Made by a program: the position numbers and the translations under genes
The notes under the pieces: model-generated
Database searches by the model: none
What the model saw: only the letters and a program-made list of their open reading frames with translations
Told to the model about the DNA's origin: nothing
Shown: one piece after another, positions 12,375 through 39,146 of the stretch
Position numbering within the stretch: the first letter of the stretch is position 1
Layout of the letters: every line of letters begins with the position of its first letter
Source of the DNA: a virus
DNA: 39,146 nt
IMG/VR virus record: IMGVR_UViG_3300029319_006992
Coordinates: 1 to 39,146 of that record
Direction: 5' to 3' (one strand)

Positions 12375-12756
12375 CTTCAGTAGTCTCCTCGATCACCTGA
12401 TCGGAAATCTTTTCCAAGAAGCTATTAAACTTCTCTGCCTGCTGTAGCCTCTGTTCAATGCTGGACTTCAATTTAACTGCATCAATCTCAGTCTCATGAT
12501 CTTGATCCCGATTATGATAGCCGCTTAAGATGTTACCTGCTTGCGCTAGCATCATATCAATATCTGCTAGGTGCTCTCTTAGTTCGTTTAAATTTTCTAA
12601 CACTTCATCAAAATCCTCTTCGCTGTGCGGTTCCATAATGCTTTCACTAAACCCCTTCACTAGCTCAACTAATCTTTGCCCCTCGTTAGCTAGCAAGCTT
12701 TTTGATAATTGTTTTACCTGATCAATATGAATGTTTAGGTTAATATTTGCTCTCAT
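12361..12756 (-). CDS. acidic coiled-coil protein, 131 aa
   Basis: Almost entirely helical with heptad-like spacing: VKQLSKSLLANEGQRLVELV, FDEVLENLNELREHLADIDM, SSIEQRLQQAEKFNSFLEKI. The C-terminus is acidic (EETTEDAEE). An AAGGAGG ribosome site precedes the ATG. It may be a dimerising scaffold or adaptor. No family recognised. Confidence 0.65.
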   Translation of the reverse strand: MRANINLNIHIDQVKQLSKSLLANEGQRLVELVKGFSESIMEPHSEEDFDEVLENLNELREHLADIDMMLAQAGNILSGYHNRDQDHETEIDAVKLKSSIEQRLQQAEKFNSFLEKISDQVIEETTEDAEE

Positions 12757-12768
12757 ATAAGTTCCTCC

Positions 12769-13533: not shown

Positions 13534-13596
13534 TAGAATAACCTCTTACAATACTATGTATCCCCTTTTATCACATTATGCTAGTGAGTGTATAAT

Positions 13597-14217
13597 TTAT
13601 TTACCCGCTGACTTCAGGCAACGGTCTTCGAGTTTGACTTGCTCACCGTTGACAAGCACCGTTGATTTAGGCCAGAGACCGACAGGGTGATTAGCCACAA
13701 TCAAGCCAACTTGGTTGTGAAGATCATGACGCTGAACCAAGTTGTAATTGGAGCGGATCTTGCAAAGTGAACCGATAGGGAAGGCAGGCGGCTCAGTTGC
13801 AGCAGCGATAGCCTTCTTGGCGTATTTGTTTTTGGTCAGAGCGTTGAACTGGCGCTCGGTTGGAATAAAGTTCTCATCAGTAAGGACACTGTGAGCAAGG
13901 TCACGGAAGTAGCTAGTCGTCATGTAGTACTGAGCGCAGATCATAGCGATCTCACGGTGACCCTCTGCTTTGTAGCTGGACGCCCATGCATCACGAGCAG
14001 CGATAGCCTCATCAGAGTAACGCTCCTCCATGCGCTCGACACATTCAATCTGCTTAGGTGTCAGACCTGACTCAAGCTGACCTTGAAGCGACTCAGCAAA
14101 CCTACGGTCGCCAGGCTTCAATTCTTTGGCTAGCAGCGCCTCAAAACGTGCAGCCCCATTGTCCAACTCAAGGCGCTCTGCCTTTCGACGGCGGGGGTAC
14201 ATGAAAGAATAAGACAT
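13597..14217 (-). CDS. hypothetical protein, 206 aa, G+C-rich
   Basis: Start at the ATG at 14217 with AAGGAG upstream. The N-terminal two-thirds is helical and charged (ARFEALLAKELKPGDRRF, LTPKQIECVERMEERYSDEA), similar to the zinc-binding/primase-linked LTPKQ...ERM segments in phage replication accessory proteins. The C-terminal part is beta-rich: IGSLCKIRSNYNLVQRHDL, then QVGLIVANHPVG and STVLVNGEQVKL. The gene is richer in G+C than its surroundings and shares promoter and leader with the zinc-knuckle gene at 3687-4595. Function unknown. Confidence 0.72.
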   Translation of the reverse strand: MSYSFMYPRRRKAERLELDNGAARFEALLAKELKPGDRRFAESLQGQLESGLTPKQIECVERMEERYSDEAIAARDAWASSYKAEGHREIAMICAQYYMTTSYFRDLAHSVLTDENFIPTERQFNALTKNKYAKKAIAAATEPPAFPIGSLCKIRSNYNLVQRHDLHNQVGLIVANHPVGLWPKSTVLVNGEQVKLEDRCLKSAGK

Positions 14218-14236
14218 TTCTCTCTCCTTACAATTC

Positions 14237-14264
14237 ATACTACCACAGCATGTTTAGAAGTCAA
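14237..14264 (-). promoter_or_regulatory. sigma70-type promoter of the 206-aa gene
   Basis: Minus strand: TTGACT, 16 bases ending TGG, TAGTAT, then GAATTGTAAGGAGAGAGAA and the ATG. Spacing and most bases from -10 to the start codon repeat the promoter at 4616-4643. The -35 is one base from consensus. Confidence 0.65.
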
Positions 14265-14276
14265 GGAAATTATAAA

Positions 14277-14684
14277 TTAAACTTTATATTTTTTTATCCA
14301 CTCGTAACGTGGGCGGGTTGCGAGGTAGTCAACATCTAGTTCATTATTATAGGCTTCTTGTTCTGCTCGGATACGATGATAGGCTTTGTTAGCAGCAGAG
14401 TGATACTCCCACCCACGGGTATTTTTCTGACCTTTCCAGTCATTGCGGTACTTCCAGCAACCGACCAGATAATCCCAAACATATAATAATATCATCCCAA
14501 TCACACCAGTCTCAAGTGTTTGCTGGAAGTGGATAGTTTCGTGTCGCTTGGTTACCTCATCCATTTTGCCTCGGCTGAACACCAAAAAGAAAATAGTAAT
14601 CGCACCAATGTTCAATGGTGCAAAGTAAGATAATATAACAGGCACCTTGCTGTTCTCTATAAAAAATGGTTTCCAGTTTTTCAT
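14277..14684 (-). CDS. membrane protein with HExxH zinc-metalloprotease motif, 135 aa
   Basis: Start at the ATG at 14684 (ATGA overlap with the upstream mini-gene). Two hydrophobic segments, VILSYFAPLNIGAITIFFLV (about 15-35) and TGVIGMILLYVWDYLVGCW (about 60-78), flank KRHETIHFQQTLE, which carries H-E-T-I-H. A downstream acidic helix (IRAEQEAYNNE) could supply the third zinc ligand, as in gluzincins. Whether it is an active protease is unproven. The basic C-terminus ends EWIKKYKV. Confidence 0.55.
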   Translation of the reverse strand: MKNWKPFFIENSKVPVILSYFAPLNIGAITIFFLVFSRGKMDEVTKRHETIHFQQTLETGVIGMILLYVWDYLVGCWKYRNDWKGQKNTRGWEYHSAANKAYHRIRAEQEAYNNELDVDYLATRPRYEWIKKYKV

Positions 14685-15350: not shown

Positions 15351-16946
15351 TCAGATTGCCTTTTGATCCTCTTGCTTCCGTAAAACTGAGCAGTTTGTTG
15401 TGATTAATATTCCTGCTGCTGACGAAGCATTTGTAACTGCTGACTTTGTTACTTTGACGGGATCGATGACACCTGCCTCAATCAAGTCCTCGAATCTGCC
15501 CGTCCTCACGTTAAACCCAACTAGATTGGTGTCTTCACCTGTAGGGATGGAGTTTATTACCACATCGCTAGAGATCCCAGCGTTGTCGAGAATCTGCCGC
15601 AGCGGAGAGTAGCAAGCTGACACTAATGTTTGATAGCCTAGAAGCTCGCCTCTAGTTTCAAAGTTTCGCTCTGGTAGTGCCATAGCTGCACGAATCAGAC
15701 TAATACCACCGCCAGGGACCACGCCTTCTTCCTGTGCGCTTCGCACTGCCTCAAGTGCATCTTCAAACCTATGCTTCTTCTCCTCTACCTCAACTTCGGT
15801 TGCTCCACCAACTTGCAATACTGACACGCCTGATGCTAATCGAGTGATGCGCTCTTGAATCTTTGTCGCCTCGTGCATATCTTCTGTGGTCTCAACTTCT
15901 TTCTTTAGTGTCTCCACCAAAGTGTCAAGCTCTTCAAAGTCTGTATTGCCGCCAACAAAAGTTGTTCTGTTCTTGAGGATCTCTACGCTCTTGCAGGCCC
16001 CCAAGTGTTCTAATTTAATATCCCCCAGTCGAATACCACTGTCCCTGCTGATAAACGTAGCACCAGTAGTAACCGCAATGTCGGACAAAATAGCCCGTCG
16101 TTCTTCACCGTACTCGGGCGCTTTGATCGCAGCGATCTTCATACCATTACGCATACGATTGATAATCAGAGATGCTAACAGTTGACCTGTGACCTCTTCT
16201 GCCGCAATGATGCAAGGTCGTCCATCACGAGCGATGACCTCAAGAACTGGTAGCATCTCCTCTAATGAATCTAGCTCATGGTCTGTAACCAAAACTAAAG
16301 CATTATTATATTCTACTGCGTTACGTCTGTGGTCTGTCACAAACTTAGGTGAGACATACCCTGCTGATACTTTGAAGCCTTCAATAACATCCAGCTTCGT
16401 TTCCAGTGACCTGCTCTCTTCAATCTTGACTGCGCCGTCTTTACCAGCAGCTACAACTGCTGATGCAACCAACTGTCCAATCGTTGTGTCACCGTTGGCT
16501 GACACAGTTGCTACGTGCTCAATATCTTCTTCAGATGAAATAGGGCTAGACATCTCATCAAGCTGACCTAAAATATCTTCGGTAGCTAAGTCGATGCCTC
16601 GCTTCATCTCTACGCCCGATACGCCAACCGCTAATTGCTTCTGAGCTTCTCGTAGGAGATCACGAGCAATCACAACTGTTGTAGTTGTCCCGTCGCCACT
16701 AGACTTCTCGGTCTCCATGCTAGCCTGTCGAACCACATCAATACCAGCTTGCTCGAAGTCATCTTCAACTTCCACAACTCGTGCCACGCTTACGCCGTCT
16801 TTGGTCACCACGGGCGGTGCACCCCGTTGGTACAGGATAACATTCTGCCCTGCTGGTCCGAGTGTTGAGCTAACAGCATTGGCTAACTTATCAACTCCTG
16901 CTAGTAATTTGTTTTGTGTTTCTGATCCAAATAATATATTTGTCAT
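15351..16946 (-). CDS. groEL: GroEL-like chaperonin, 531 aa
   Basis: A group I chaperonin subunit that folds proteins in an ATP-driven double ring. The nucleotide-binding segments are present: LGPAGQNVIL, VTKDGVSVA, SSGDGTTTTVV, and the hydrolytic Asp in HRFEDALEAVRSAQEEGVVPGGG. The apical domain (about 190-370) and both hinge regions are in order. Length is slightly short of the usual 548, and the C-terminus lacks Gly-Gly-Met repeats, ending NCSVLRKQEDQKAI. GroESL clients in phages are often capsid proteins. The only GroES-like gene lies 20 kb away (37198-37452). It follows Dam with a 4-base gap, and a terminator ends the unit. Confidence 0.95.
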   Translation of the reverse strand: MTNILFGSETQNKLLAGVDKLANAVSSTLGPAGQNVILYQRGAPPVVTKDGVSVARVVEVEDDFEQAGIDVVRQASMETEKSSGDGTTTTVVIARDLLREAQKQLAVGVSGVEMKRGIDLATEDILGQLDEMSSPISSEEDIEHVATVSANGDTTIGQLVASAVVAAGKDGAVKIEESRSLETKLDVIEGFKVSAGYVSPKFVTDHRRNAVEYNNALVLVTDHELDSLEEMLPVLEVIARDGRPCIIAAEEVTGQLLASLIINRMRNGMKIAAIKAPEYGEERRAILSDIAVTTGATFISRDSGIRLGDIKLEHLGACKSVEILKNRTTFVGGNTDFEELDTLVETLKKEVETTEDMHEATKIQERITRLASGVSVLQVGGATEVEVEEKKHRFEDALEAVRSAQEEGVVPGGGISLIRAAMALPERNFETRGELLGYQTLVSACYSPLRQILDNAGISSDVVINSIPTGEDTNLVGFNVRTGRFEDLIEAGVIDPVKVTKSAVTNASSAAGILITTNCSVLRKQEDQKAI

Positions 16947-19913: not shown

Positions 19914-20606
19914 TCATGCTCCGTTCAGGGCTGCTAAGATTTCCTGGCGAATCATTGCCTCAAGGTCTAGGCTTTCGTTCTTTTCCTCGTCCTCTTCTTC
20001 TGCGTCACCACCCGCTTTCTTGATGATGGCCTTCTGGAGGCTGTCGGGCAACTCGTCTTGGTCGCCTTTTAGTTTGGGATTGTCGTCATACTTTTTAGTT
20101 GACTTTTGCTTGCCCTCTTGCTTGCCACTGCGTAGGGCATCTAGATAGGCTTGGTCAGGCTTCACTACAGGGAGAGGCTCTTCACCTTTCGCAACAAGAA
20201 CTGCGTTATATGCTTTCATGTATTCTTCGTCGCCTTGTCCAATCTTCGATGGGGGGTTGCCCATTTCAGCATCGATCTTGCCATACTCGGAGAATCTCGC
20301 TTCCTCTATATTCTCTTGACGGTTGCCTGGTTGCATTGCTGGTCCGCCGATCATGTCTATCAATTTAGTCAGGTTTTCCTCAACCCTCTTAGCCAACATA
20401 TATGCGTCGGTGCCTACATCCTGAGCTAGCGGGGTATTGCTCTCACGGACCTTGCGGATCGCTTTAGCAGCCATGGACAAAGCCTCCATAGCATCCTTGT
20501 TGTCACCATAGCCAGCGCCGATGGGACGAGCGATCTCGTCGAGCTTAATCTGCTCTTCTCTAATAATTTGCTTCAACCTAGCTTTGCTAATTTGGAATGA
20601 ACTCAT
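19914..20606 (-). CDS. IIKEE-tagged protein, 230 aa
   Basis: Begins M-S-S-F-Q-I-S-K-A-R-L-K-Q-I-I-R-E-E-Q, the recurrent tag with a three-residue N-terminal extension. A helical domain follows (ALSMAAKAIRKVRESNTPLA, then MLAKRVEENLTKLIDMIGG), then a segment like that of the 4677-5210 protein (MGNPPSKIGQGDEEYMKAYN), a lysine/aspartate-rich linker and a helical C-terminus (LDLEAMIRQEILAALNGA). The last part resembles the C-terminal helix of the acidic protein at 22447 (LDLEVVDDEALTEAVL). A TATTTATA motif precedes it. Inferred head-associated protein. Confidence 0.75.
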   Translation of the reverse strand: MSSFQISKARLKQIIREEQIKLDEIARPIGAGYGDNKDAMEALSMAAKAIRKVRESNTPLAQDVGTDAYMLAKRVEENLTKLIDMIGGPAMQPGNRQENIEEARFSEYGKIDAEMGNPPSKIGQGDEEYMKAYNAVLVAKGEEPLPVVKPDQAYLDALRSGKQEGKQKSTKKYDDNPKLKGDQDELPDSLQKAIIKKAGGDAEEEDEEKNESLDLEAMIRQEILAALNGA

Positions 20607-23303: not shown

Positions 23304-24350
23304 CTATTTTCTCCGCCCGCTTTGGGTTGTTAGAATATGCGTACCACTCTCGATCAAGCCTGCTGAGGTTTGTCGGGCCCACTCTACTTTATGTTGTAGC
23401 TCGTCAATACTACGAGCACCAGTGTAAGATAATCCACTGCGAATACCGCCATCAAGATCCCTCAAGATATCAATAGCACTGCCCTTAAATGGAATATATG
23501 AGGCAACGCCCTCTGGGGTAGAAGACTTGTTGCGCCAGTTCATTTGTGCATCTTTAGAGGCCATGCCTCGATATTCTTTGACCCTGCTATTATCGGGTAG
23601 ACTGATCACCCTGCCAGGACTCTCAGTTGTGCCTGCCAGAAGAGACCCACACATCACAAAGTCGGCTCCTGCGGCTAGGGCTTTGACAATATCTCCAGAG
23701 GTTTTGATTCCGCCATCTGCGATGATTGCAACATCTCTGTCTGTTTTAGCACAATCAAAGATTGTTTGCAAGCCTGGTAATCCATGACCCGTGACTATAC
23801 GAGTGCTACAAATGGAGCCGCCACCAATATTACAGCGCACTGCGTTGGCACCCCAATCAGCAAGATCGTTGATACCTTCTAACGTGCAGACGTTGCCTGC
23901 CATAATATAAATATTATTTCCATATTCTTGCCGCAAAGTCGTAAGTGCTTTCTTCATCAAGGCATGATGTCCATGGGCAACATCCACACAGAGGATATCA
24001 ACACCAGCACTGATAAGCGCCTCGGTACGCTCTAGGTAATCACCCGTCACGCCGATAGCAGCGGCGAGCTTTTTCTCAACCAAGTTAGTAGCCTTGTCTA
24101 CTTCGACTGCCATAGCTTGTTGCTCTGTGATAGAGTTGTAACGGTGGAGTACAGCAAGCCCGCCAGCGTTAATCATGGTGACTGCCATCTCTGTTTCAGA
24201 CACGGTGTCCATCGGTGAAGCAATGATAGGTAAAGTAAACTCTCTGTGCCCAAGGTAGTTTGTAATGTCTACCTCGCTCCTACTTTCGATATCGCTGTAC
24301 TGCGGCACCAAAAGCATGTCATCATAAGTGACTGCTTCTTTAAACTTCAC
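23304..24350 (-). CDS. IMP dehydrogenase/GMP reductase family enzyme, CBS-less
   Basis: A TIM-barrel purine enzyme. N-terminal [26 protein letters not shown]; catalytic loop [17 protein letters not shown] with the active Cys; [22 protein letters not shown]; then [11 protein letters not shown] and [18 protein letters not shown]. At 348 residues it lacks the CBS pair usual in IMP dehydrogenases and has the length of GMP reductase. The Y-R-G-M flap favours IMP dehydrogenase, while the P-F-K-G...G-G-I-R-S-x-x-x-Y-x-G-A end favours GMP reductase, so direction is open: IMP to XMP or GMP to IMP. It begins at GTG with AGGAG seven bases upstream. Confidence 0.88.
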
Positions 24351-24673: not shown

Positions 24674-25603
24674 TTATTCTTCAGCAGGCTCTTCGGCGGC
24701 TGGTTCTTCTGCTGGTGCATCGCCCGAAGTATCTTTAGCGGCCAACTGTGTAGCCATCCAAGATTGACCTAGCGGGTTTCCAACTGGTGCCTGAGCAAAT
24801 TCTTGCACTGCTCTAGTTGCCTCCTTGCTAGGTGGCACTGGCTCGTTATTGACAACGATTGTGAAGTTCTTTACGCCGAACAACTCTTGATAGTTTTCTT
24901 TGTTGTCCTGAACTTGTTGCCACATCTTCTCAACTTCTTCAGGATCTAACTTTCTTTCTCTCTTGGCATTTTGCTCTTGTGCACGCTCAAGCGAGGTATC
25001 TACAAAGATCATGTAGGTATCATACCCAAGATCGATTAGGGCTTGTCTTTTCCGATTTAGTTTTTCAAAGTCCTTGCCTGTGCCGTCAATTAACATACCC
25101 AAGCGACCGCTAGCGTAGAAGTCCTTTAATTTATTAAGCTTATCTTTTGCGATGTTGCGAACAGAATCAGGGCGCTTACCAAGCAAGCCAATCTGTGCTG
25201 CTAGTTCTGCTGCATCCTGACCTTTGTACTCGCCCTCTTCTTTGGCAAGCTGGGAGATTTGACCCAAGTCAGCAAGCGGGATCCCCATCTTCTTTAGCCC
25301 TATCTCAAATAGGTTATCACTATTAACATACTTGAGACCATAACGACCTAAGAAAGAAGCAGCATTAAATTTCTTTTTGCCGCCTGGATCTCTGACGCCG
25401 AACATCAGATCAGCCACGTAGGATTTACCACTGCCTGGTCCACCTGCTGTAAAGACAGCTTTGAGGATGCCTGGGTCATAGACGCCTTCTTCTAGCATTT
25501 CCTCGTTGAGTGTGTTGGGCTCATCAAGTAAAAAGTCATAGCGTTCTTGCATGACTTCTTTTTGTACTTGCTTAATAAATTCTCGTAGTTGTTTAATATT
25601 CAT
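24674..25603 (-). CDS. P-loop kinase-like protein with tag-like N-terminal helix, 309 aa
   Basis: Walker A at about residues 53-60 in AVFTAGGPGSGKSYVADLMFG, then KYVNSDNLFEIGLKK (a Zeta-toxin-like acceptor region), GMLIDGTGKDFEKLNRKRQALI and YMIFVDTSLERAQEQNAKRE (an N-x-x-R-x-R-like lid). This order fits Zeta-toxin/polynucleotide-kinase P-loop enzymes that phosphorylate a small molecule or nucleic acid. The N-terminus MNIKQLREFIKQVQKEVMQE is a divergent form of the tag shared by its upstream neighbours. The tail is acidic (EEPAAEEPAEE). It is last in the tagged unit. If the tag targets heads, it could be an injected enzyme; the substrate is unknown. Confidence 0.78.
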   Translation of the reverse strand: MNIKQLREFIKQVQKEVMQERYDFLLDEPNTLNEEMLEEGVYDPGILKAVFTAGGPGSGKSYVADLMFGVRDPGGKKKFNAASFLGRYGLKYVNSDNLFEIGLKKMGIPLADLGQISQLAKEEGEYKGQDAAELAAQIGLLGKRPDSVRNIAKDKLNKLKDFYASGRLGMLIDGTGKDFEKLNRKRQALIDLGYDTYMIFVDTSLERAQEQNAKRERKLDPEEVEKMWQQVQDNKENYQELFGVKNFTIVVNNEPVPPSKEATRAVQEFAQAPVGNPLGQSWMATQLAAKDTSGDAPAEEPAAEEPAEE

Positions 25604-25605
25604 GT

Positions 25606-26631
25606 TTAGAATCCTGATCCGTAGCCGCCTGAGTCGAACGACTCTTGCTCATCTCTTGCTTCTTCTGCATAATCTTCATAGGCTTGCATGGCTTTCATTT
25701 CTTTGCCTTGACCCATGAGACCCATCTTCGTTAGCTGCTGGAAGAAAGTTATCTTTGGATCATTTACTTTATTATAAAGACCCCTCTTTGGATCGGCTAG
25801 TTTCATTATATTTTTCACTGCCTCATCGCCAAGCTTTATGCCCTGCTTCTTTAGAAAAGCGACCATCATTTTGGTTCTTCCCTCTGCTGTAGCGAGGTTT
25901 TCTTTTAAAACTTTCTCGATCTCTTCTTTGATGATCGTGTTGAGTTTACTCTTTGTGATCTTTTTCATCTTACTTTCTCCAAATGGTAACTGTGCTTGCG
26001 CTTCTGGTTCGGCAGCCAATGAACCTGTCTGGCTCTTGTAGAGGCTACCACCTTGTTTAATTAGGTTTAAAACACCCTTTATGCTTTTAATATTTCCATG
26101 CCCGCCACGAAGCTTCTTGATGGCATCATATTTCTCGTCCTCAAGTTGGTCGTCGCCAAATGGAAACTCAACTTTCAGATTGTATACTGTGGCATCACCG
26201 CCACGATTAGGGATGGCTTCAATGTTGAACTCAACATGGTCAGGCGTGAACACGTCAAATTGCAGGATGCGATATCTGATTGGCTGGATGTTCAGGCTGG
26301 GCTTGCCTGAGCCAGGATAGATATCTTTTAGCACTCTGGCTAGTTCATCCTCAACTACGTCAGCAGCTTTGATGAGAGCATCGTAAAGATCGTTGTCCTT
26401 GCCTTTGTCTAGTAGACCTGCATGGATTGCTTTGTTAAGCTCCTCCATGGCCATCTCACCTTGGGTGGCTTCATCAAGTTCAACACTCTCAGCTTTCACA
26501 CAGTTTCTATATCTTCTGCCAAACATTACTTTGGTCTTACGAGTAGGGTGTGTCTTATAGCCTTTCTGGCAACGCTCATTGACGATCTCTTCTTCAATGA
26601 TTTTTAGTAGTTGAGATTTGGTAAGCTTCAT
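25606..26631 (-). CDS. two-tag protein, 341 aa
   Basis: Starts MKLTKSQLLKIIEEEIVNER, followed by CQKGYKTHPTRKTKVMFGRR and YRNCVK, a Cys-flanked basic motif. Residues 60-200 are an alpha/beta domain (VEDELARVLKDIYPG, then IQPIRYRILQFDVFTPDHVE). At residue 222 a second tag begins: MKKITKSKLNTIIKEEIEKV, followed by a helical C-terminal domain (TKMMVAFLKKQGIKLGDEAV) and a Gly-rich end SFDSGGYGSGF. So two tagged proteins are joined in one frame with no stop between. An internal ribosome site stands before the second Met. It may be a recent fusion or a gene giving both a long and a short product. Confidence 0.78.
   Translation of the reverse strand: MKLTKSQLLKIIEEEIVNERCQKGYKTHPTRKTKVMFGRRYRNCVKAESVELDEATQGEMAMEELNKAIHAGLLDKGKDNDLYDALIKAADVVEDELARVLKDIYPGSGKPSLNIQPIRYRILQFDVFTPDHVEFNIEAIPNRGGDATVYNLKVEFPFGDDQLEDEKYDAIKKLRGGHGNIKSIKGVLNLIKQGGSLYKSQTGSLAAEPEAQAQLPFGESKMKKITKSKLNTIIKEEIEKVLKENLATAEGRTKMMVAFLKKQGIKLGDEAVKNIMKLADPKRGLYNKVNDPKITFFQQLTKMGLMGQGKEMKAMQAYEDYAEEARDEQESFDSGGYGSGF
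25966..25980 (-). promoter_or_regulatory. internal in-frame ribosome site and start for the second tag
   Basis: Sense GGAGAAAGTAAGATG: GGAG eight bases before the ATG of residue 222 of the 26631 ORF. It is as good as most starts in this unit and would yield a separate 120-residue tagged protein (25606-25968). Confidence 0.5.
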
Positions 26632-26632
26632 C

Positions 26633-26809
26633 TTACTCTCCCTCGCTATCTACCAGTCTATCTAGGATAGCTTGCAATCTTTCATGCTGGGACTTGTGTG
26701 CCTGCACGGCTTTCTTAAGCTCTGCTATAACATCATTCATCGTGTCTTTGTCACGATCTGAAATCTCTTCTTTGATGATTTGTCGTAGTTGTTGTTTTGT
26801 GATTTTCAT
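26633..26809 (-). CDS. IIKEE-tagged mini-protein, 58 aa
   Basis: Reads MKITKQQLRQIIKEEISDRD, then a single helix (MNDVIAELKKAVQAHKSQHE and RLQAILDRLVDSEGE) with heptad spacing. It is little more than a tag plus one coiled-coil helix. The stop lies one base before the next tagged start, so translation is coupled. The size and order match the neighbouring tagged genes. Confidence 0.72.
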   Translation of the reverse strand: MKITKQQLRQIIKEEISDRDKDTMNDVIAELKKAVQAHKSQHERLQAILDRLVDSEGE

Positions 26810-26819
26810 TTGTTATCCC

Positions 26820-27191
26820 TCAGCCTAAGTCATCTTCGTCAGATAGACGACGACCTGCCTCTTTGGTTAACATCGTTGCAGTTTCAAAAATTATCTCTGG
26901 GTCTGCATCTTGTCCCTCTAGTTCCTTCTTGAACTCCATGAACATACCAGTGGCTTTCTCGAAGCGAGGATCTTTGAGCACCGCTGTTTGCTTGTCGTTA
27001 AGGTTCTGACCTTTTGCTACAGCCCTAAGCATGTAAGTATATCCGTATGTCTGTTTGTCTGTGTTTTCGTTACCATCCAAGCCAAGCTCTTTGAGCATTG
27101 CCTTGACAACCTCGTCTCGTCTTTCAAGCTGGTTGCCAGAATACCTGACTTCTGCAATATACTTGCGCCACTCTGATAATAGTTCTTTCAT
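26820..27191 (-). CDS. protein with variant IAE tag, 123 aa
   Basis: The N-terminus MKELLSEWRKYIAEVRYSGN differs from the common tag but ends in I-A-E, the same cleavage-type triplet found in the T4 internal proteins' targeting peptide (…F-I-A-E). Then a helical domain: EVVKAMLKELGLDGNEN, TYGYTYMLRAVAKGQNLN, EKATGMFMEFKKELEGQD, EIIFETATMLTKEAGRRLSD. It starts immediately after the stop of the Cys-rich peptide. Inferred to belong to the same targeting system. Confidence 0.75.
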   Translation of the reverse strand: MKELLSEWRKYIAEVRYSGNQLERRDEVVKAMLKELGLDGNENTDKQTYGYTYMLRAVAKGQNLNDKQTAVLKDPRFEKATGMFMEFKKELEGQDADPEIIFETATMLTKEAGRRLSDEDDLG

Positions 27192-27293
27192 CTAACACGC
27201 CCCTTCGCAGCTAGTGCAAGCGCAACAACCGCAGCAGCAGCAACAGTGGCTGCTATTGAATAAGTTAACTAATTTGTGTAGAAAGTTTTTCAT
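27192..27293 (-). CDS. cysteine-rich mini-protein, 33 aa
   Basis: Reads MKNFLHKLVNLFNSSH, then CCCCCGCCACTSCEGAC: ten cysteines in the last 17 residues. AGGAAA precedes the ATG, the upstream gene ends 10 bases away, and the stop is directly followed by the next ATG, so the gap is exactly filled by this ORF. A short amphipathic N-terminal helix plus Cys cluster could bind metal, form disulphides or attach to a membrane. It lacks the tag. The TGC repeat could also be a neutral low-complexity stretch, so translation needs proof. Confidence 0.5.
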   Translation of the reverse strand: MKNFLHKLVNLFNSSHCCCCCGCCACTSCEGAC

Positions 27294-27302
27294 AGTGTTT
27301 TC

Positions 27303-27596
27303 CTAATTAAGCCCAAGCCTCTGCGAGTCACTAAAGTGCGCTTTGTATTCTTTAGGGTATAACTCACTAACCATTTTGTCAAACTCCTCATCCTCGCCCG
27401 CAGCCTCTGCTGCCTGTTGGGCGTCGCCGAGGGCGACGACCGTATCGCTCGCTTTTCCAGCAGACTTAACAACTTTACGCCAATCCATATTTTTTGGTTC
27501 TTTTTTCTGGCCGACCCCTAGACCAAAGGGTTTGAAAAATTCTTTCATAATTTCTTCTTTTATAATTTTTCGTAGTTCTGATTTTGTGATTTTCAT
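27303..27596 (-). CDS. IIKEE-tagged protein, 97 aa
   Basis: Tag MKITKSELRKIIKEEIMKEF, then FKPFGLGVGQKKEPKNMDW and a helical acidic part (VVALGDAQQAAEAAGEDEEF). The ATG overlaps the upstream stop by one base (TAATG). The F-K-P-F-G-L-G-x-G motif after the tag is a hydrophobic, glycine-rich segment not found in the neighbours. Function beyond the tag unknown. Confidence 0.75.
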   Translation of the reverse strand: MKITKSELRKIIKEEIMKEFFKPFGLGVGQKKEPKNMDWRKVVKSAGKASDTVVALGDAQQAAEAAGEDEEFDKMVSELYPKEYKAHFSDSQRLGLN

Positions 27597-27862
27597 TAGT
27601 CGTTCTCCAGTGCGAACATGATCTCGTCCATTGCCTTAGAGATGGCCCTAGCAGCATCATCAAGATGGCTCTGTGCATCTTGGATTGGAACGCTGCCGCC
27701 CATCTTATCAATAAGGTCGTTTGAAAGTGAGCCGATCTTTTGACGCATTTCCATCAAAGCTGCAACATGTGGCTGGTCTGCATGAGGGTTCTTACCAAGG
27801 TCAGCGTAGCGTCCAACTTCTTCTTTAATAATTTGCTTTAGCTGTGCCTTGGTGATCCTCAT
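27596..27862 (-). CDS. IIKEE-tagged helical protein, 88 aa
   Basis: I start at the ATG at 27862, where the tag MRITKAQLKQIIKEEVGRYA begins; the six codons before it are an artefact of an open frame. After KNPHADQPHVAALMEMRQKI come two helices (GSLSNDLIDKMGGSVPIQDA and QSHLDDAARAISKAMDEIMF). It resembles the first domain of the tagged protein at 19914 (AAKAIRKVRES...LIDMIGGP), so those two may be paralogues. The stop overlaps the next tagged start. Confidence 0.77.
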   Translation of the reverse strand: MRITKAQLKQIIKEEVGRYADLGKNPHADQPHVAALMEMRQKIGSLSNDLIDKMGGSVPIQDAQSHLDDAARAISKAMDEIMFALEND

Positions 27863-27863
27863 C

Positions 27864-28082
27864 TTAGTAACCACCCCCACTCAGCAAATCATCTATTCTA
27901 AGCAACGTTTCATTCTGAGGGTCTTTTCTTAGAAGCATACCCACTAGTTGAATTATCTCTTCATAACTTGATTGGGTCAGTGCATCTTCAAATCTTTCGT
28001 CCCTTCCCTCTTGGGAATAGTCCATCTCTGTTTGAAGTTCTTCTTTGATAATCTGCTGTAATTGTTGTTTTGTAATCTTCAT
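27864..28082 (-). CDS. IIKEE-tagged protein, 72 aa
   Basis: Tag MKITKQQLQQIIKEELQTEM, then DYSQEGRDERFEDALTQSSY and EEIIQLVGMLLRKDPQNETL, ending RIDDLLSGGGY. A short helical protein with an ATGA overlap with the upstream tagged gene and two bases to the next. No further domain is recognisable. Confidence 0.77.
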   Translation of the reverse strand: MKITKQQLQQIIKEELQTEMDYSQEGRDERFEDALTQSSYEEIIQLVGMLLRKDPQNETLLRIDDLLSGGGY

Positions 28083-28414
28083 TTTGACTCCCCGTATCTT
28101 TTAATAACCTCAACCGCTGCCTTGTTTATATGGTAGAAGTCCTGATCAAATTGGGAGCCGAGGGTTTTTATAATGGCGTCTTTCTTATCTTCCATATTTT
28201 TGCCTGGGGTAAATTTAATAGCCTTCGCCAGGACTGCTGGGTCTGCCAAGAGAGCTTCAAGCTTTTCTTTATAGTCCTCATCACCTTGCTTAGGCATCTG
28301 AGGTTTATCAATAAATCTCTTAATATAAGCGTCAGCCATGTGCTTCGTTTCAGCATCTGTGAAGCTAAGTGCCTCTCTGATCATTTGTCGTAATTGGTTT
28401 TTTGTGATCTTCAT
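28079..28414 (-). CDS. IIKEE-tagged protein, 111 aa
   Basis: Starts at the ATG at 28414 (GGGGAG upstream), giving MKITKNQLRQMIREALSFTD, a variant with M-I-R-E-A in place of I-I-K-E-E. The body is helical (AETKHMADAYIKRFIDKPQM, YKEKLEALLADPAVLAKAIK) and ends in AAVEVIKRYGESK. The frame is open eight codons upstream but that part has no tag character. It lies in the middle of the tagged unit. Confidence 0.76.
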   Translation of the reverse strand: MKITKNQLRQMIREALSFTDAETKHMADAYIKRFIDKPQMPKQGDEDYKEKLEALLADPAVLAKAIKFTPGKNMEDKKDAIIKTLGSQFDQDFYHINKAAVEVIKRYGESK

Positions 28415-28424
28415 TTTGGCTCCC

Positions 28425-28604
28425 CTACATTTCCCCAAGATGACGTGTGAGGATATCTTTTACATCTTTAGTGAGTCCTATAAACTTCAGATCCTCGATG
28501 AGGTCATCCAGTTCTTTAAGACGCATCCGTCTATGATCATACTGCGCCTCTCGTAAGACCTCTTCTTTAATAATTTGTTTTAGCTCTGCCTTAGTAATCT
28601 TCAT
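28425..28604 (-). CDS. IIKEE-tagged mini-protein, 59 aa
   Basis: Reads MKITKAELKQIIKEEVLREA, then QYDHRRMRLKELDDLIEDLK and FIGLTKDVKDILTRHLGEM. A short coiled-coil-like helix follows the tag. The start overlaps the upstream stop as ATGA. Like the 58-residue gene at 26633, it is essentially a tag with a helical payload. Confidence 0.73.
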   Translation of the reverse strand: MKITKAELKQIIKEEVLREAQYDHRRMRLKELDDLIEDLKFIGLTKDVKDILTRHLGEM

Positions 28605-28840
28605 ATGTCGTACCCGCTCATGTCGATATCGCCAACGGGCTCACCACTTGGCTTCATTCCACCATGGCGTACTTTTATAGCCATTAGGTCATCCATAACT
28701 CCCTGTGATAATCCCATCTCTTGAGCGATTTCCATCATCTTCTTGAGTGCTACCTCAACCTGCGGACTGTACTCTTCGTTCATCTCTTTAGCAACTTCTT
28801 CTTTAATGATTTGCTGTAGTGTTTCTCTAGTAATCTTCAT
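28601..28840 (-). CDS. IIKEE-tagged protein, 79 aa, first gene of the unit
   Basis: The ATG at 28840 with GGAG upstream starts MKITRETLQQIIKEEVAKEM; a longer open frame to 28882 crosses the leader. Then NEEYSPQVEVALKKMMEIAQ, EMGLSQGVMDDLMAIKVRHG and a Gly-rich end. Helical. It is the promoter-proximal member of the tagged unit, 43 bases after an ACTATTTATA motif. Confidence 0.76.
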   Translation of the reverse strand: MKITRETLQQIIKEEVAKEMNEEYSPQVEVALKKMMEIAQEMGLSQGVMDDLMAIKVRHGGMKPSGEPVGDIDMSGYDI

Positions 28841-28901: not shown

Positions 28902-31900
28902 CTATAAAAGCCTAAGATTATGCTTGATGCTGAAAGTGCTAAATCCCCACCGTGCTTCATGCTTGAGCTTACCGACGTAGATGCGATTGGTTTTGATAAC
29001 GTCTGTGTCTTTTACACCCCAGCATTTGATCTGCTCATCCGCCCCGTTGTGGTCCGTGACTGACACAATATAATATTTCTTGCCGTGCTTTGTCTTCTTG
29101 ACCTTGACCTCTCTCGGAATGAACCAACAAAGGATAAGCTCGGGGTCAAACTCGGAGATCGGTGGGCAGCCTTTGTTCATAAGCGACTGTCGTGTAAAGT
29201 CGTCCATGATAAGGTCGATAGGATAGATCCCCGTGAGTGTTGTCAGATGCTCAATCTCCTCTTCCTTGGAGAACTCGCCCTCATCTTTGTAGGCATCGAT
29301 GTTCTCTAGCAGGTTCTTTTCCTTGCGGGGTCTGTCCACAGCAACGGCAGACCAAAAGTGTTTCGTCCCTGTAAACCTGTCGTCCATCAACTCGTCAAGG
29401 GCCTTGCTCCTGACTAGAACATCTAGAGCCTTCTTGTTGAGCTTGGAGTATGTGATGTCCTCGTTGAACAGGAACTCCTCAATATTATTAAATGGTCTGT
29501 TGTCTAGGACCTGCTGAATAGCTGTAGTCCCTAGACCCTTGATCGCTGTCAAAGGCTGGATCAAGCTTTGCCCATCCTCGGAGATCTCCCAAACCATCCC
29601 TGACTTGTTGATGCTAGCAGGGACAACATTGAACCCAAACGACTTCGCTGTATTGATCGCTGCCATCTTGCGCTTCTCTGGCTCTTTGTCTAAGAACGCT
29701 GCGATCCACTCGGTCGGATAGTAATGTGCCAACCAAGCGCACTGGAACGACACCGCCCCATACGAAACTGCATGTGACAGGTTGAAGCCATAGCCTGAGA
29801 AGTATTCCATCTTAGACCACAAGTCTTTGGCTTTTGCTTCTGCTAGACCCTTGTCCTTACAGCCTTTGAGGAACTTATTATAAATCTTGTTCCGCACGCT
29901 GTCTTTGCCTGTGCCACGCTTAGTAAGAACTTTGCGGAGAAGGTTCCCCTCGTCTAGCGTGATGTTATCTCCCAGCTTGTGAGCCAACATAGCCAACTGC
30001 TCTTGGAACACTAGCAACCCATACGTGTCGCCTAGCACCTCCTCGATAAGAGGATGATCGTAAGTCACCTGGCTTGTGTTGCTCTTGTTAGCAATATACA
30101 TCTTGTCTGCCTTAGCCGACAATGGACCTGGCCTAAAGATCGCCGTGATCGCCGCAAAGTCCATAAGCGACTCTGGCTTTGCCTCTTGGCAGAAAGCCTG
30201 GGCTGGACCACTGGTCATCTGAAACACACCTGCCCACTTACCCTGATGAAAGATATTCTTCCAGACTGCCTGGTCATCGAAGTCAATCACATCGGGATGC
30301 AACTCCTTATCATAAAACTCTCTGACCTGCTCGAATGTTGGGTCTTCGATCCCACGGTGCCGCTTCAAGATGTGCCGAATGGCACCCGAGATCATGCGTA
30401 GCGTCGAGAGTCCCAACAAGTCAAACTTAATAAACCCAAGCGGCTCTAGGTGTCGAACGTTCTGCCCCTCGCTCCATGGGGTCTGCATTACCCCACCCGA
30501 GTTGATTAGTGGCATATGCTTGTCTAGGTTCTCTGCGACCACAACACCACCAGCGTGCCTACTCACACTGCGAACATTACCAAAGAGGTTGTCAACGTGC
30601 GTAGCGATATGCGGGTACTTGTCGAAGAACGCTTGTAGCGTTTCACTATATTTTTTTACCTCGTCAAATGTTGGCGTGTATACACCTGCGGTCTGCCCAT
30701 GGGCTGCCTTAGCCTTGGGCGTTGCCTCGCTCATCATCACGCCTGTAACTTTGTTTACCTCTGCAAACGGCACGCCATAGAACTTGCCAATGTCCTTGAT
30801 GAGTGAGCGCAACTGTAGTGTGTTGAAGTTGCTGATAGGCACAACAGTTTCACGTCCCCACTCATTTGCTAGGCGCTCTTTCAACTCCATAGGCTCTTCC
30901 ACATCAAAGTCGATGTCGGGGTACCCTGCGCCACCTTTGGTCAAAAATCTCTCAAACTGTAGACCATACTTGATTGGGTCCACCTGGGTAATGTCGAGGA
31001 CATACGAGAGCAATGATCCTGCCGCCGAGCCTCGGCCGAGCCCGACAAGCATATCCTCCTGTGCCTTGTCACTAATCGCCTTCATAGTCAAGAAGTACTG
31101 TGCAAAGCCTCGGTCCTTGATCACTGACAGTTCGTACTTGAGTCTGTCAATATACACTTGGTCTGTTAGTTGTTTTTCTTTTAGCCCTACCAATGCATCC
31201 TTGGTCAATGCCTGGATTGCCGTGGTGCCCTCTGGCACAACAAAGTCTGGTAGGCGAACCTGGCTGTCTGGCAGGAAGTCCTCGATGCGATCAAAGGCGA
31301 TGTGGTGTGTGCGCTCAATGCTAGCCAACACAAAGTCATCATCATACTCTACCTTGGAGCGACCTGAATACTTCTTGTAGGCCTCCCACATCTGATCACC
31401 GTTACGAGGATACAACTCGTAGCCAATCTCCTCGACTGACTCTGGGAGTCTGTTAGCATCCTGATCGTCATAAGGAGCTTTGCCTGCCCACCCAATACGG
31501 CGGTACATCTCTCGGTCCTTCCACAACTCTGGTCGTGGGTAGTGACTATCTGAAGTGCTGATAACTTCTGCGCCCATCTCGGTGCACGCCTGAATGATTA
31601 GATCGTTGACAGTGTGCTGCTCTGGGATGTCATTCCACTGGATCTCCCCGTAGAACCTATCGCCAAAGATATCTTGGAACTCGGCAATCGTATTACGCAT
31701 CGAAGCCAACACGGTGTCTGCATCGTACTCACCCGTGCTAGGATCACGGTGTTTCCAAAAGTCCCCAAAGAGTGGACCTGACATACAAGCACTGCTAACG
31801 ATCAAGCCTTCGTTGTATTCCCTCAACATCTCAAAGTCAATGCGGGGGTAACGGTAAAAATTTTCGGGACGATAACTGTCCGATACAAGCTTGAAAAGAT

Positions 31901-32324
31901 TATTCAAACCGACCTGATTCTGAGCTAAGAGAACCAAGTGTCTGCGAATGTTTAGAGGATTGAACTTCTTCTGGCGGTTCTCATCCTCAACAACCATAGC
32001 AAACTCTTCTTTCTTTTGCCGCTTGCTGTTGGCTTTGTGCTCTTCGTACTGCTGCCGCCACTTCTTGTGTGACTTAATAAAGTAAGCCTCACAACCATAG
32101 ATTGCTTTGAACTCTTTGCCATCTGCCCTCATCTTCTTTAGATGCTCAACCTGAAAGGATAAGCCGTTCATGTGTCCGTGGTCGGTAAGCGAATGGGCAC
32201 TCATCCCATTCTCGTAAGCGAAGTCCATATGCTCGCCTGGCATACCCAAGCCATCAAATGGGGAAAGACCTGAGTGGGCATGGAGTCCCACAAAAGGAAT
32301 CTTACTATCGATCCTGTTTGTCAT
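28902..32324 (-). CDS. dnaE: DNA polymerase III alpha subunit (DnaE type)
   Basis: Replicative polymerase, 1140 residues, full family length. PHP domain at the N-terminus (VGLHAHSGLSPFDGLGMPG, then HSLTDHGHMNGL). Palm with GLGRGSAAGSLLSYVLDITQ, the two catalytic Asp in GYPDIDFDVEEP (about residue 470) and the third Asp in GFIKFDLLGLSTLRMI. Fingers include MTSGPAQAFCQEAKPESL and FGYGFNLSHAVSYG-like YFSGYGFNLSHAVSYGAVSF. The helix-hairpin-helix region is LTAIKGLGTTAIQQVL, followed by a C-terminal OB fold (KYYIVSVTDHNGADEQIKCW). The start at 32324 has AAAGG seven bases upstream. No proofreading subunit or clamp is in the window. Confidence 0.95.
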   Translation of the reverse strand: MTNRIDSKIPFVGLHAHSGLSPFDGLGMPGEHMDFAYENGMSAHSLTDHGHMNGLSFQVEHLKKMRADGKEFKAIYGCEAYFIKSHKKWRQQYEEHKANSKRQKKEEFAMVVEDENRQKKFNPLNIRRHLVLLAQNQVGLNNLFKLVSDSYRPENFYRYPRIDFEMLREYNEGLIVSSACMSGPLFGDFWKHRDPSTGEYDADTVLASMRNTIAEFQDIFGDRFYGEIQWNDIPEQHTVNDLIIQACTEMGAEVISTSDSHYPRPELWKDREMYRRIGWAGKAPYDDQDANRLPESVEEIGYELYPRNGDQMWEAYKKYSGRSKVEYDDDFVLASIERTHHIAFDRIEDFLPDSQVRLPDFVVPEGTTAIQALTKDALVGLKEKQLTDQVYIDRLKYELSVIKDRGFAQYFLTMKAISDKAQEDMLVGLGRGSAAGSLLSYVLDITQVDPIKYGLQFERFLTKGGAGYPDIDFDVEEPMELKERLANEWGRETVVPISNFNTLQLRSLIKDIGKFYGVPFAEVNKVTGVMMSEATPKAKAAHGQTAGVYTPTFDEVKKYSETLQAFFDKYPHIATHVDNLFGNVRSVSRHAGGVVVAENLDKHMPLINSGGVMQTPWSEGQNVRHLEPLGFIKFDLLGLSTLRMISGAIRHILKRHRGIEDPTFEQVREFYDKELHPDVIDFDDQAVWKNIFHQGKWAGVFQMTSGPAQAFCQEAKPESLMDFAAITAIFRPGPLSAKADKMYIANKSNTSQVTYDHPLIEEVLGDTYGLLVFQEQLAMLAHKLGDNITLDEGNLLRKVLTKRGTGKDSVRNKIYNKFLKGCKDKGLAEAKAKDLWSKMEYFSGYGFNLSHAVSYGAVSFQCAWLAHYYPTEWIAAFLDKEPEKRKMAAINTAKSFGFNVVPASINKSGMVWEISEDGQSLIQPLTAIKGLGTTAIQQVLDNRPFNNIEEFLFNEDITYSKLNKKALDVLVRSKALDELMDDRFTGTKHFWSAVAVDRPRKEKNLLENIDAYKDEGEFSKEEEIEHLTTLTGIYPIDLIMDDFTRQSLMNKGCPPISEFDPELILCWFIPREVKVKKTKHGKKYYIVSVTDHNGADEQIKCWGVKDTDVIKTNRIYVGKLKHEARWGFSTFSIKHNLRLL

Positions 32325-32345
32325 GTGCAACCTTTACTTTTTTAT

Positions 32346-37724: not shown

Positions 37725-39146
37725 TTAAGTTATTTCACACGCACCACCTGCACAGGCCGCTTCGCCCTTCAGGTCAGTGTTGTCATCAAACTCAACAATC
37801 TTTGTAAGATCCAAAGAAGTCAGCGACTTAACCATCTCTTCGTATTGCTCCTTAGTGCAATTCTCAAATGGCGCTTGGACATATGTGCCGCCGTCATCAG
37901 GCAACACACTCAATCCGTTGTAGCTAACGTTGTTGTCCCACATCCACTCTCCAACTTCTTCCCACTCGTCTTCTTTAATCGAGATGGTAGCAGAGACATT
38001 GTGTGTGTTTTGCCCTGTTCTGTGACCTGGGCGAATCCACTCCTTAGTAACCTTCCTGACTCTGTTTAGCAAATCCAAAGCAGACTCAGTTCTCAAGATT
38101 GAACCATCAGGGGCTTTCTGAGGGATGCCAATGACCGCTGTGTCATGAGGGCGGAAATAGTCATCTTCTACAAGTTCTGGGTGATGGATTGCTAGGTGGG
38201 CATAGATTGCCTCATTCTTGCCAACACGTAGGCGACGAATATAATAATCATTGTGCCATGCGTGAATACCGCTCGATGTTCCAAGTGTCAATGAGGTTGT
38301 GCCAGCAGGCTTAACGCATGTGGTACGAGAAGCTGATCTGATGCCAATAAGCTCAGACACTCTGACATTTTCTTTCTTGACGTTTTGCGAGGCTTCCTTT
38401 AAGGAGATGCCATCTGCAAGAACACGACCTGAAGCAATGCCTGTTAATGAAACGCCAATAAGAGCATCTCTTTCTGTGGTTCGTTGCCATACTGGTCGGA
38501 GATAGTGAAAGTCTGTGTAGCCCGCTTGGAGCGTGCCAATGAACGCTGCTGCTTGGACTCTTTCATTTAGATCTTCTTGACTAGTAATATTGCTAGCGTT
38601 GACCTCTGTCAAGTTACAGAATTGGTGTGGTCTAAGAGCAATTTCACAGCATGGGTTTGTACCCCAGTCTTTATCATTAGACAGATAAAATCCTGGCTCT
38701 CCTGCTCCCGAAGCTCGAATTCTTTCCCACAGGTTCATAAAATATTCTTTGTCTACTTTATGCCGCAGCAAAACAACAGAGTTGTTAGCTCGCCCACGCT
38801 GTGGGTTTGTTTCCCACCAGTTGCCCGACTTTGCTGCGATCATCTCATCGTCGTCTGCCGAAAATAAAGAAATGAGTGCTGCTCGACGGATGCCGCCAGC
38901 CAACACGGCGTCAGCAATATGGCACACGATGTCGTGGACTTCAATAGCGGACAGCTTGCTTCCATCTTCCTTTTCAGAAAGAACGCCCTCTACTTTAACC
39001 AAGCACTCTTTAAGTGGTTGTGGTCCTGGAGCTTTGCCACCAGAGGTTACGAGGCGAGCACCTTTAGCACGAATATCGCTATAATCAAATCGTAGCCGTG
39101 AGCCACCGAAGAAGTAACTGCGAATAAGATATTTGACGGCATCAGC
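37725..39146 (-). CDS. nrdJ: class II (B12-dependent) ribonucleotide reductase, C-terminal part (runs off right edge)
   Basis: Reduces ribonucleotides to deoxyribonucleotides using an adenosylcobalamin radical. The open frame continues to the window end. Visible: FDYSDIRAKGARLVTSGGKA, GDGS-like LSAIEVHDIVCHIADAVLAG, GIRRAALISLFSADD, the N-C-C-E-I...C-N-L-T-E-V-N active-site block, RTTCVKPAGTTSLTLGTSSG and IHAWHNDYYIRRLRVG, and a C-terminal Cys pair (ACAGGACEIT, five residues apart). That pair passes electrons to the active site. The pattern matches the monomeric Lactobacillus-type enzyme. About 470 residues are present of a probable 700 or more. Glutaredoxin at 10944 is the likely reductant. 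Confidence 0.92.
   Translation of the reverse strand, partial: ADAVKYLIRSYFFGGSRLRFDYSDIRAKGARLVTSGGKAPGPQPLKECLVKVEGVLSEKEDGSKLSAIEVHDIVCHIADAVLAGGIRRAALISLFSADDDEMIAAKSGNWWETNPQRGRANNSVVLLRHKVDKEYFMNLWERIRASGAGEPGFYLSNDKDWGTNPCCEIALRPHQFCNLTEVNASNITSQEDLNERVQAAAFIGTLQAGYTDFHYLRPVWQRTTERDALIGVSLTGIASGRVLADGISLKEASQNVKKENVRVSELIGIRSASRTTCVKPAGTTSLTLGTSSGIHAWHNDYYIRRLRVGKNEAIYAHLAIHHPELVEDDYFRPHDTAVIGIPQKAPDGSILRTESALDLLNRVRKVTKEWIRPGHRTGQNTHNVSATISIKEDEWEEVGEWMWDNNVSYNGLSVLPDDGGTYVQAPFENCTKEQYEEMVKSLTSLDLTKIVEFDDNTDLKGEAACAGGACEIT

What the first reader, a model, noticed from the sequence alone, without database searches (positions are those of the whole stretch)
24674..28840. A unit of small unrelated proteins sharing one N-terminal peptide: candidate head-targeting system
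Seen: nine starts in 3 kb encode M-K-I-T-K-x-x-L-x-x-I-I-K-E-E or a near variant (28840, 28604, 28414, 28082, 27862, 27596, 26809, 26631, internal 25968), with looser forms at 27191 and 25603, and two more copies at 5210 and 20606. What follows the tag differs from gene to gene. Known: phage T4 internal head proteins and Alt share a short N-terminal capsid-targeting sequence ending in (I/L)-x-E, cut by the prohead protease. Here I-K-E (and I-A-E at 27191) sits at residues 12-14. Inference: this is an expanded targeting system that loads many small proteins, and a kinase, into the phage head for injection or core formation. The payload list would then be a set of early host-takeover factors.
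Basis: partly seen in the sequence, partly recalled or inferred. Interest (0 to 1): 0.88.

Follow-up and report, generated by a model that had tools for sequence, protein, structure and literature searches.

The report
Phage head-targeting tag on many proteins
A group of mostly uncultured T4-related viruses puts the same short leader peptide on about 10 to 40 otherwise unrelated small proteins per genome, and the evidence suggests this is an address label that loads them into the virus head, where the label is cut off, probably so they can be injected into the host.

Summary
Eight starts between 26,631 and 28,840, one internal start at 25,968 and one at 5,210 encode M-K-[IL]-T-K-x-x-L-x-x-I-I-K-E-E; 20,606 and 25,603 carry looser forms. 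Other large T4-headed contigs carry about 6 to 42 copies each. The reading as a T4-type capsid-targeting sequence (CTS) is well supported. (1) Every tagged contig that carries the gp23 capsid gene (26/26) also encodes a T4 gp21-type protease. (2) A protein encoded just downstream of gp21 has a tag-like N-terminus. (3) The gene at 27,191 carries a second tag, MKELLSEWRKYIAE, common in these phages. (4) Homologous payloads carry the KITK tag in one phage and the WRK tag in another; in two cases the swap boundary is exactly (I/L/V)-x-E14. (5) The window's kinase has cultured-phage relatives whose unrelated N-termini all end in (L/V)-x-E just before the same domain start. One of them, in Agrobacterium phage Atu_ph07, lies in a run of LxE-leader genes inside a gene cluster rich in mass-spectrometry-confirmed virion proteins. 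The tag has no detectable sequence homology to T4's CTS, and virion presence and cleavage are untested. Verdict: a new, greatly expanded variant of a known kind; injection of the payload is inferred.

The parts
28601..28840 (-). tagged gene, 79 aa: MKITRETLQQIIKEEVAKEMNEE...
   Evidence: payload 61% identical in relative G021
28425..28604 (-). tagged gene, 59 aa: MKITKAELKQIIKEEVLREAQ... (second LRE|A at residue 19)
   Evidence: payload absent from relative G021
28079..28414 (-). tagged gene, 111 aa: MKITKNQLRQMIREALSF... (IRE|A at residue 14)
27864..28082 (-). tagged gene, 72 aa: MKITKQQLQQIIKEELQTEM...
   Evidence: payload alone has no match in G021
27596..27862 (-). tagged gene, 88 aa: MRITKAQLKQIIKEEVGRYAD...
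   Evidence: payload 93% identical in G021
27303..27596 (-). tagged gene, 97 aa: MKITKSELRKIIKEEIMKEFF...
   Evidence: payload absent from G021
26820..27191 (-). gene with the second, WRK-type tag: MKELLSEWRKYIAE|VRYSG..., 123 aa
   Evidence: homologue in G021 keeps the tag (MKELLSEWRKYITE)
26633..26809 (-). tagged gene, 58 aa: MKITKQQLRQIIKEEISDRD...
25606..26631 (-). tagged gene, 341 aa, with a second internal tag (MKKITKSKLNTIIKEEIEKVLKE from 25968, own SD-like GGAG); fusion or nested start
24674..25603 (-). P-loop kinase (AAA_33 / Zeta-toxin family) with degenerate tag MNIKQLREFIKQVQKEV and LEE|G (residues 37-39) immediately before the conserved domain GVYDPGILKAVFTAGGPGSGKS
25487..25489 (-). 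codon for Glu39 of the kinase gene, predicted cleavage point after it (mature N-terminus GVYDPG)
   Evidence: conserved (L/V)xE|G column in HTVC008M, Melnitz and Atu_ph07 homologues
19914..20606 (-). outlying gene with offset tag MSSFQISKARLKQIIREE, 230 aa
4677..5210 (-). outlying tagged gene, 177 aa: MKITKSELRQIIKEELLNEYGAG (LNE at residue 19)

Best explanation
The 14-15 residue KITK tag, often extended to about residue 22, is a capsid-targeting propeptide in a T4-headed phage. It forms an N-terminal helix that binds the prohead core during assembly, so each tagged protein is built into the prohead. The gp21-type protease then cuts after (L/I)-x-E, either at I-K-E14 or at a second site usually ending at residue 18-22, and the mature payload stays in the head and is delivered with the DNA. 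Genomes use the tag as an interchangeable address, so the payload set turns over quickly. Shown here: the tag, its spread, its co-occurrence with gp21, its site statistics and its exchange with another (I/L)xE-ending tag on homologous payloads. Inferred: core binding, cleavage, virion presence and injection.
For: gp21 (PF03420) is found in 30/40 tagged viral contigs and 1/25 random contigs (Fisher p 6e-9); all 26 tagged contigs with gp23 have gp21, and contigs without gp21 also lack gp23. The gene one or two places downstream of gp21 has the tag-like N-terminus M-K-K-S-x-L-K-x-I-I-K-E-C...V-(I/L)-x-E and is the best non-tagged match of its head region in most loci. MCPs of these genomes carry (L/V)-L-(R/K)-E|(A/S/T/Q) before the mature domain, 13/13 found. 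Tags carry hydrophobic-(L/I)-x-E with E at 18-30 in 90/295 against 17.9 +/- 3.9 shuffled and 6/295 further downstream. Tags with a small residue at 15 lack it, 3/38 against 82/246, p 0.001. A second tag, MKKLLTEWRKFLKE, ends (L/I/V/M)xE in 46/49; its payloads include ADP-ribosyltransferase, GNAT and P-loop kinase domains. Tag swaps: L053/L084 and L210+L054/L241, with boundary at E14 in both tags, and L073/L017. The kinase at 24,674 has cultured relatives starting MKTFAELQE|GVYDPN, MIPFILKE|GLYDPG and ...VTE|GVNDKH. Atu_ph07 gp53 starts MKWNDLNE|A and gp54-62 start M(K/R)WxQLxE; (L/I)xE within residues 6-17 occurs in 27/46 of gp31-76, a region with 29 MS-confirmed virion proteins (PMC6102473), against 9/64 in flanking genes. 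Published rule: gp21 cuts after L/I-X-E, T4 IP propeptides are 10-19 residues (PMC9026906).
Against: No mass spectrometry or cleavage data exist for any KITK-tagged protein. The tag has no detectable homology to the T4 CTS (0 profile hits in T4, KVP40, P-SSM2). Residue 15 is usually Glu, while these MCPs have A/S/T/Q after the cut, so I-K-E14|E may be a poor site. The exclusivity of the two sites is not seen within genome G016. gp21 co-occurrence is confounded by ancestry, because the tag may simply be a feature of one T4-like lineage. The window record contains no gp21. The detection status of individual Atu_ph07 gp53-63 proteins in the published table could not be read.
Confidence: 0.8

Rival explanations
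1. The tagged proteins are prohead-core or scaffold parts: the tag lets them co-assemble into the core, they are then degraded or packed as DNA-binding filler, and they do nothing in the new host.
For: The gp21-neighbour protein with the same kind of N-terminus is a head-module gene; nearly all KITK payloads have no recognisable domain; T4 core proteins are chopped by gp21 (PMC9026906).
Against: Payloads are highly diverse (264 clusters) and turn over between close relatives whose flanking genes are 86-91% identical, unlike scaffold genes. Proteins under the second tag include ART, GNAT and kinase domains.
Confidence: 0.12
2. The tag is a docking helix for some other phage or host structure (membrane, nucleoid, RNA polymerase, replication factory) and has nothing to do with the head.
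For: It is an amphipathic helix-like segment; many copies do not sit next to head genes; direct virion evidence is missing.
Against: Exact exchange with a second (I/L)xE-ending tag at residue 14; (L/I)xE sites at floating positions; head-module gene with the same start; restriction to gp21/gp23 phages.
Confidence: 0.07
3. One gene family was duplicated many times; the N-terminus is merely its slowest-evolving part.
For: Tags within one genome share a dialect (G005 MKITKRQLKRIIREE), and codon identity is slightly above expectation, so tag copies do spread by duplication.
Against: Payloads are unrelated by BLAST, differ in length from 41 to 422 aa and include LRR, pentapeptide, YkuD, GNAT and EF-hand folds; the same payload occurs under different tags.
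Confidence: 0.05
4. The repeated segment is a DNA-level element (translation enhancer, promoter or recombination site) at gene starts.
For: Copies sit exactly at starts behind strong SD-like sequences.
Against: Third positions vary while the protein is fixed, and 11 copies occur at internal positions of longer open frames.
Confidence: 0.02

Closest known systems
T4 capsid-targeting sequence of internal proteins IPI, IPII, IPIII (and Alt)
   Same: Short N-terminal leader shared by otherwise unrelated small proteins, ending in (L/I)-x-E, in phages that encode gp21 (S77) and gp23; T4 ipII/ipIII start MKTYQEFIAE and ipI starts MKTFKEFTSTTTPVSTITE. T-even internal proteins are described as a diverse set with only the CTS conserved (PMC3012670).
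   Different: Different tag sequence with no profile match in T4; 14-22 residues; about 6-42 tagged genes per genome instead of 3-4; a second tag class coexists; most payloads unknown.
phiKZ/SPN3US ejection proteins cut by a distant gp21 homologue
   Same: Many proteins packed in the head and cut after a Glu-ending motif by a gp21 relative (PMC9026906, PMC5694885).
   Different: I did not test those phages for a shared short N-terminal tag; the KITK phages have T4-like gp21/gp22/gp23 modules instead.
Agrobacterium phage Atu_ph07 gp53-gp63 (virion-rich cluster gp31-76)
   Same: Run of consecutive genes with a common 8-residue leader ending in LxE and differing bodies; gp53 contains the window's kinase domain.
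   Different: Leader is M(K/R)WxQLxE, not KITK; larger proteins (about 250-780 aa). The leader was noticed here; I found no published description.

Membership tests
T4-type CTS-bearing internal head proteins | Common short N-terminal leader on otherwise unrelated proteins | tested here: met
   295 non-redundant tags; 316 payloads in 264 clusters
T4-type CTS-bearing internal head proteins | Leader ends in the gp21 motif (L/I)-x-E | tested here: met
   I-x-E at 12-14 in nearly all (partly by construction of the search); second site above shuffles; tag-swap boundary at E14
T4-type CTS-bearing internal head proteins | gp21-type protease and gp23-type capsid in the same genome | tested here: met
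   26/26 tagged contigs with gp23 have gp21; nearest relatives with a head module, G002 and G001, have both. Not found in the 39-kb window record itself, a fragment
T4-type CTS-bearing internal head proteins | Leader homologous in sequence to the T4 CTS | tested here: not met
   No profile match of either tag in T4; so 'works like', not 'is', the T4 CTS
T4-type CTS-bearing internal head proteins | Proteins present in the virion in processed form | not testable with these tools
   Only indirect: homologous kinase with LxE leader lies in the Atu_ph07 gp31-76 virion cluster (29 MS-identified proteins, PMC6102473)
T4-type CTS-bearing internal head proteins | Leader sufficient to target a foreign protein to the head | not testable with these tools
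   Natural tag swaps are the closest substitute
T4-type CTS-bearing internal head proteins | Payload ejected into the host and acting there | not testable with these tools
   Domain content of second-tag payloads (ART, GNAT, kinase) is suggestive only

The most novel reading that the evidence does not exclude
T4-superfamily phages possess a general, modular cargo-loading code: several unrelated short leader dialects (KITK, WRK, M(K/R)WxQLxE, MKTYQEFIAE) address tens of rapidly exchanged effector proteins per genome to the head for injection. This would make leader-tagged open frames a readable catalogue of injected anti-defence and host-takeover proteins in uncultured phages.
Probability: 0.6. 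Interest if true: 0.85.

Novelty: new variant of a known kind. Interest (0 to 1): 0.76.

Why it matters
Most genes of large environmental phages have no known function. If this tag is a head address, hundreds of small unknown proteins can be assigned at once to 'packaged and probably injected', the class to which T4's IPI anti-restriction inhibitor and Alt belong. It gives a sequence rule for finding injected effectors, a natural set of packaging signals for loading proteins into phage heads, and a testable account of why such genes sit in fast-changing clusters.

Tried and rejected
Looking for gp21 in the window itself: none, but it is a fragment. Looking for the tag in annotated phages by tblastn: only Pectobacterium phage PM2, 65% identity, E 1; no match for a second KITK consensus or a WRK query. 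Pfam/PHROGs on 273 proteins, nearly all KITK-tagged: almost no hits, so payload function could not be read from domains. AlphaFold models: the kinase model is poor (pLDDT 51); a tag-swapped payload gives a 12-residue N-terminal helix (residues 3-14) followed by a small beta domain at modest confidence (pLDDT 65), and Foldseek against PDB found nothing significant. My first idea that I-K-E14 is not a site and only L20-x-E22 matters was weakened by the tag swaps, whose boundary is E14. L098 kinase against window kinase: weak similarity only, so not used as a tag swap. The DNA-level explanation was rejected on codon variation. Literature: no description of this tag found.
Full report
OBSERVATION. 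Against a 21-column profile of the tag, nine window genes score 32-51 bits; the best of 1,850 shuffled ORFs scores -2.1. The tag is kept as protein, not as DNA: synonymous positions vary and most starts have an SD-like sequence. 27,191 carries a different tag, and the copy at 25,968 lies inside a longer open frame with its own SD and ATG.

SPREAD. Genomes of 145-293 kb hold about 6 to 42 tagged genes, often as runs of 5-20 consecutive genes. T4, KVP40 and P-SSM2 have none. Behind the tag, 316 non-redundant payloads make 264 clusters with 243 singletons; median length of tagged proteins is 109 aa. Pfam and PHROGs name almost none: LRR, pentapeptide repeat, YkuD, GNAT and EF-hand occur once or twice each.

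HEAD LINK. Of 40 tagged contigs, 30 encode a T4 gp21-type protease, against 1 of 25 random viral contigs. All 26 tagged contigs with gp23 have gp21; contigs lacking gp21 also lack gp23, so they are fragments without the head module. This includes G021, the closest relative of the window (DnaE 91% identical; no head genes). The next relatives, G002 and G001 (79% and 77%), have the full T4-like module gp17-gp20-gp21-gp22-gp23. One or two genes downstream of gp21 sits a conserved 128-153 aa protein starting MKKSELKNIIKECVKEVIFEEG or a variant. It is the most tag-like start of its head region apart from genuine tags in most loci.

CUT SITE. In these genomes gp23 carries (L/V)-L-(R/K)-E|(A/S/T/Q) about 60 residues in, just before the conserved mature domain. 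T4 gp21 cuts after L/I-X-E and gp23 loses 65 residues (PMC9026906). In KITK tags, conservation continues weakly to V19-L20-x-E22 and then stops. A hydrophobic-(L/I)-x-E with E at 18-30 occurs in 90/295 tags against 17.9 +/- 3.9 in shuffles; position 22 alone has 54. In genome G005 it is 13/19, with varying spacing (LLKE|S, GFIRE|S, GLIRE|T). Tags with A/G/S/T at 15 (IIKE|A) mostly lack the second site, 3/38 against 82/246, as if one good site per tag suffices; within G016 this is not seen. I therefore leave open whether I-K-E14 or the later site is used; both fit gp21.

SECOND TAG AND TAG SWAPS. In the same phages another leader, M-K-x-(L/I)-(L/M/F)-x-x-W-(R/K/N)-x-(F/Y)-(L/I)-x-E, heads dozens of genes, including window 27,191 and six or more neighbouring genes of G021. 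Like T4's MKTYQEFIAE it ends in (L/I)-x-E, in 46/49 cases allowing the site to float by one or two residues. Its payloads include ART-PolyVal (E 7e-8, above the curated cut-off), GNAT and AAA_33/Zeta kinases. The same payload occurs under both tags: L210/L054 MKKLLTEWRKYL(S/N)E-(I/M)KLDIKVGDVLL against L241 MKITKLQLRRIIAEAIDLDIEKGDVIL; L053 MKLILENWNNFVNE-EGELEEAMAKN against L084 MKITKQRLKEIIKE-ELEEALAKD; L073 against L017. In the first two the boundary is residue 14 in both tags. This is natural domain-swap evidence that the KITK tag does the same job as an (I/L)xE-ending, T4-like leader.

THE WINDOW KINASE. The gene at 24,674-25,603 is a P-loop kinase (AAA_33, Zeta toxin) with a degenerate tag. 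Relatives in cultured phages start MIPFILKE|GLYDPG (Pelagibacter phage HTVC008M), MKTFAELQE|GVYDPN (Methylophilales phage Melnitz) and, inside a 778-residue protein, SEVTE|GVNDKH (Atu_ph07 gp53); the window has EEMLEE|GVYDPG and G001 VLKE|GVFDPG. The upstream parts do not align, but each ends in (L/V)-x-E directly before the same domain start, as expected of a propeptide cut. All these cultured phages encode gp21. In Atu_ph07 gp53 is followed by nine genes starting M(K/R)WxQLxE and one starting MRLFQLLE; in gp31-76, a cluster with 29 mass-spectrometry-identified virion proteins (PMC6102473), 27/46 proteins have (L/I)xE within residues 6-17, against 9/64 in flanking genes. Gene numbers were checked against gp125, the head completion protein. 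I could not read which of gp53-63 were detected.

TURNOVER. Between the window and G021 the flanking genes are 86-91% identical. Of the tagged genes, 28604, 28082 and 27596 have no payload match anywhere in G021, 28414 matches only weakly inside a fused frame, and G021 has tagged genes of its own at this place. T-even internal proteins behave alike, a diverse set with only the CTS conserved (PMC3012670).

MECHANISM. Shown: the tag, its exchangeability, its site statistics and its genome context. Inferred: binding to the prohead core, cleavage by gp21, retention in the head and injection. In T4, CTS residues 4 and 7 direct targeting and 8 and 10 processing (PMC9026906); by analogy L8, I11 and I12 of the KITK helix would contact the core and E14 or E22 would be the residue before the cut.

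VERDICT. It works like the T4 CTS but is not shown to be homologous to it, and it is far more expanded. New variant of a known kind.

Noticed in passing
window 25606-26631, internal ATG at 25968: A second complete tag inside the 341-aa frame, preceded by GGAGAAAGTAAG: either a nested start or two tagged genes fused, so that cleavage could yield two products. G021 also has a long frame with two tag matches; ten other internal copies were found in related loci.
   Followed up: partly
MF403008.1 (Atu_ph07) gp53-gp63, about 39.5-50.6 kb; L263, L264: Eleven consecutive proteins of a cultured jumbo phage begin with an 8-residue leader ending in LxE, nearly all M(K/R)WxQLxE, inside a cluster rich in virion proteins.
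   Followed up: partly
L245 (LR756508.1) 12748-14350: Two genes a few kb downstream of the capsid gene of a 484-kb uncultured phage start MRLKEILLEN and MRLKNVLLKEQ; the first continues with YLYRGT, reminiscent of ADP-ribosyltransferases, but Pfam finds nothing.
   Followed up: partly
L242:4143-4370 and the gene shortly after gp21 in L157-L176: A small gene annotated as ribosomal protein S21 (RpsU) in Microcystis phage Mel-JY01 sits two genes downstream of gp21; a similar-looking short basic gene (FIKKVKKEGI...) follows gp21 in many tagged genomes.
   Followed up: no
G004 (140.2 and 142.1 kb), G016 (177.3 and 179.4 kb): Two tandem copies of the gp23 major capsid gene in two of the large KITK genomes.
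   Followed up: no
window 15351-16946, 23304-24350, 28902-32330, 37725-39002: Phage-borne GroEL, an IMP dehydrogenase/GMP reductase-like enzyme (by reading only), a bacterial-type DNA polymerase III alpha subunit and a ribonucleotide reductase part.
   Followed up: partly
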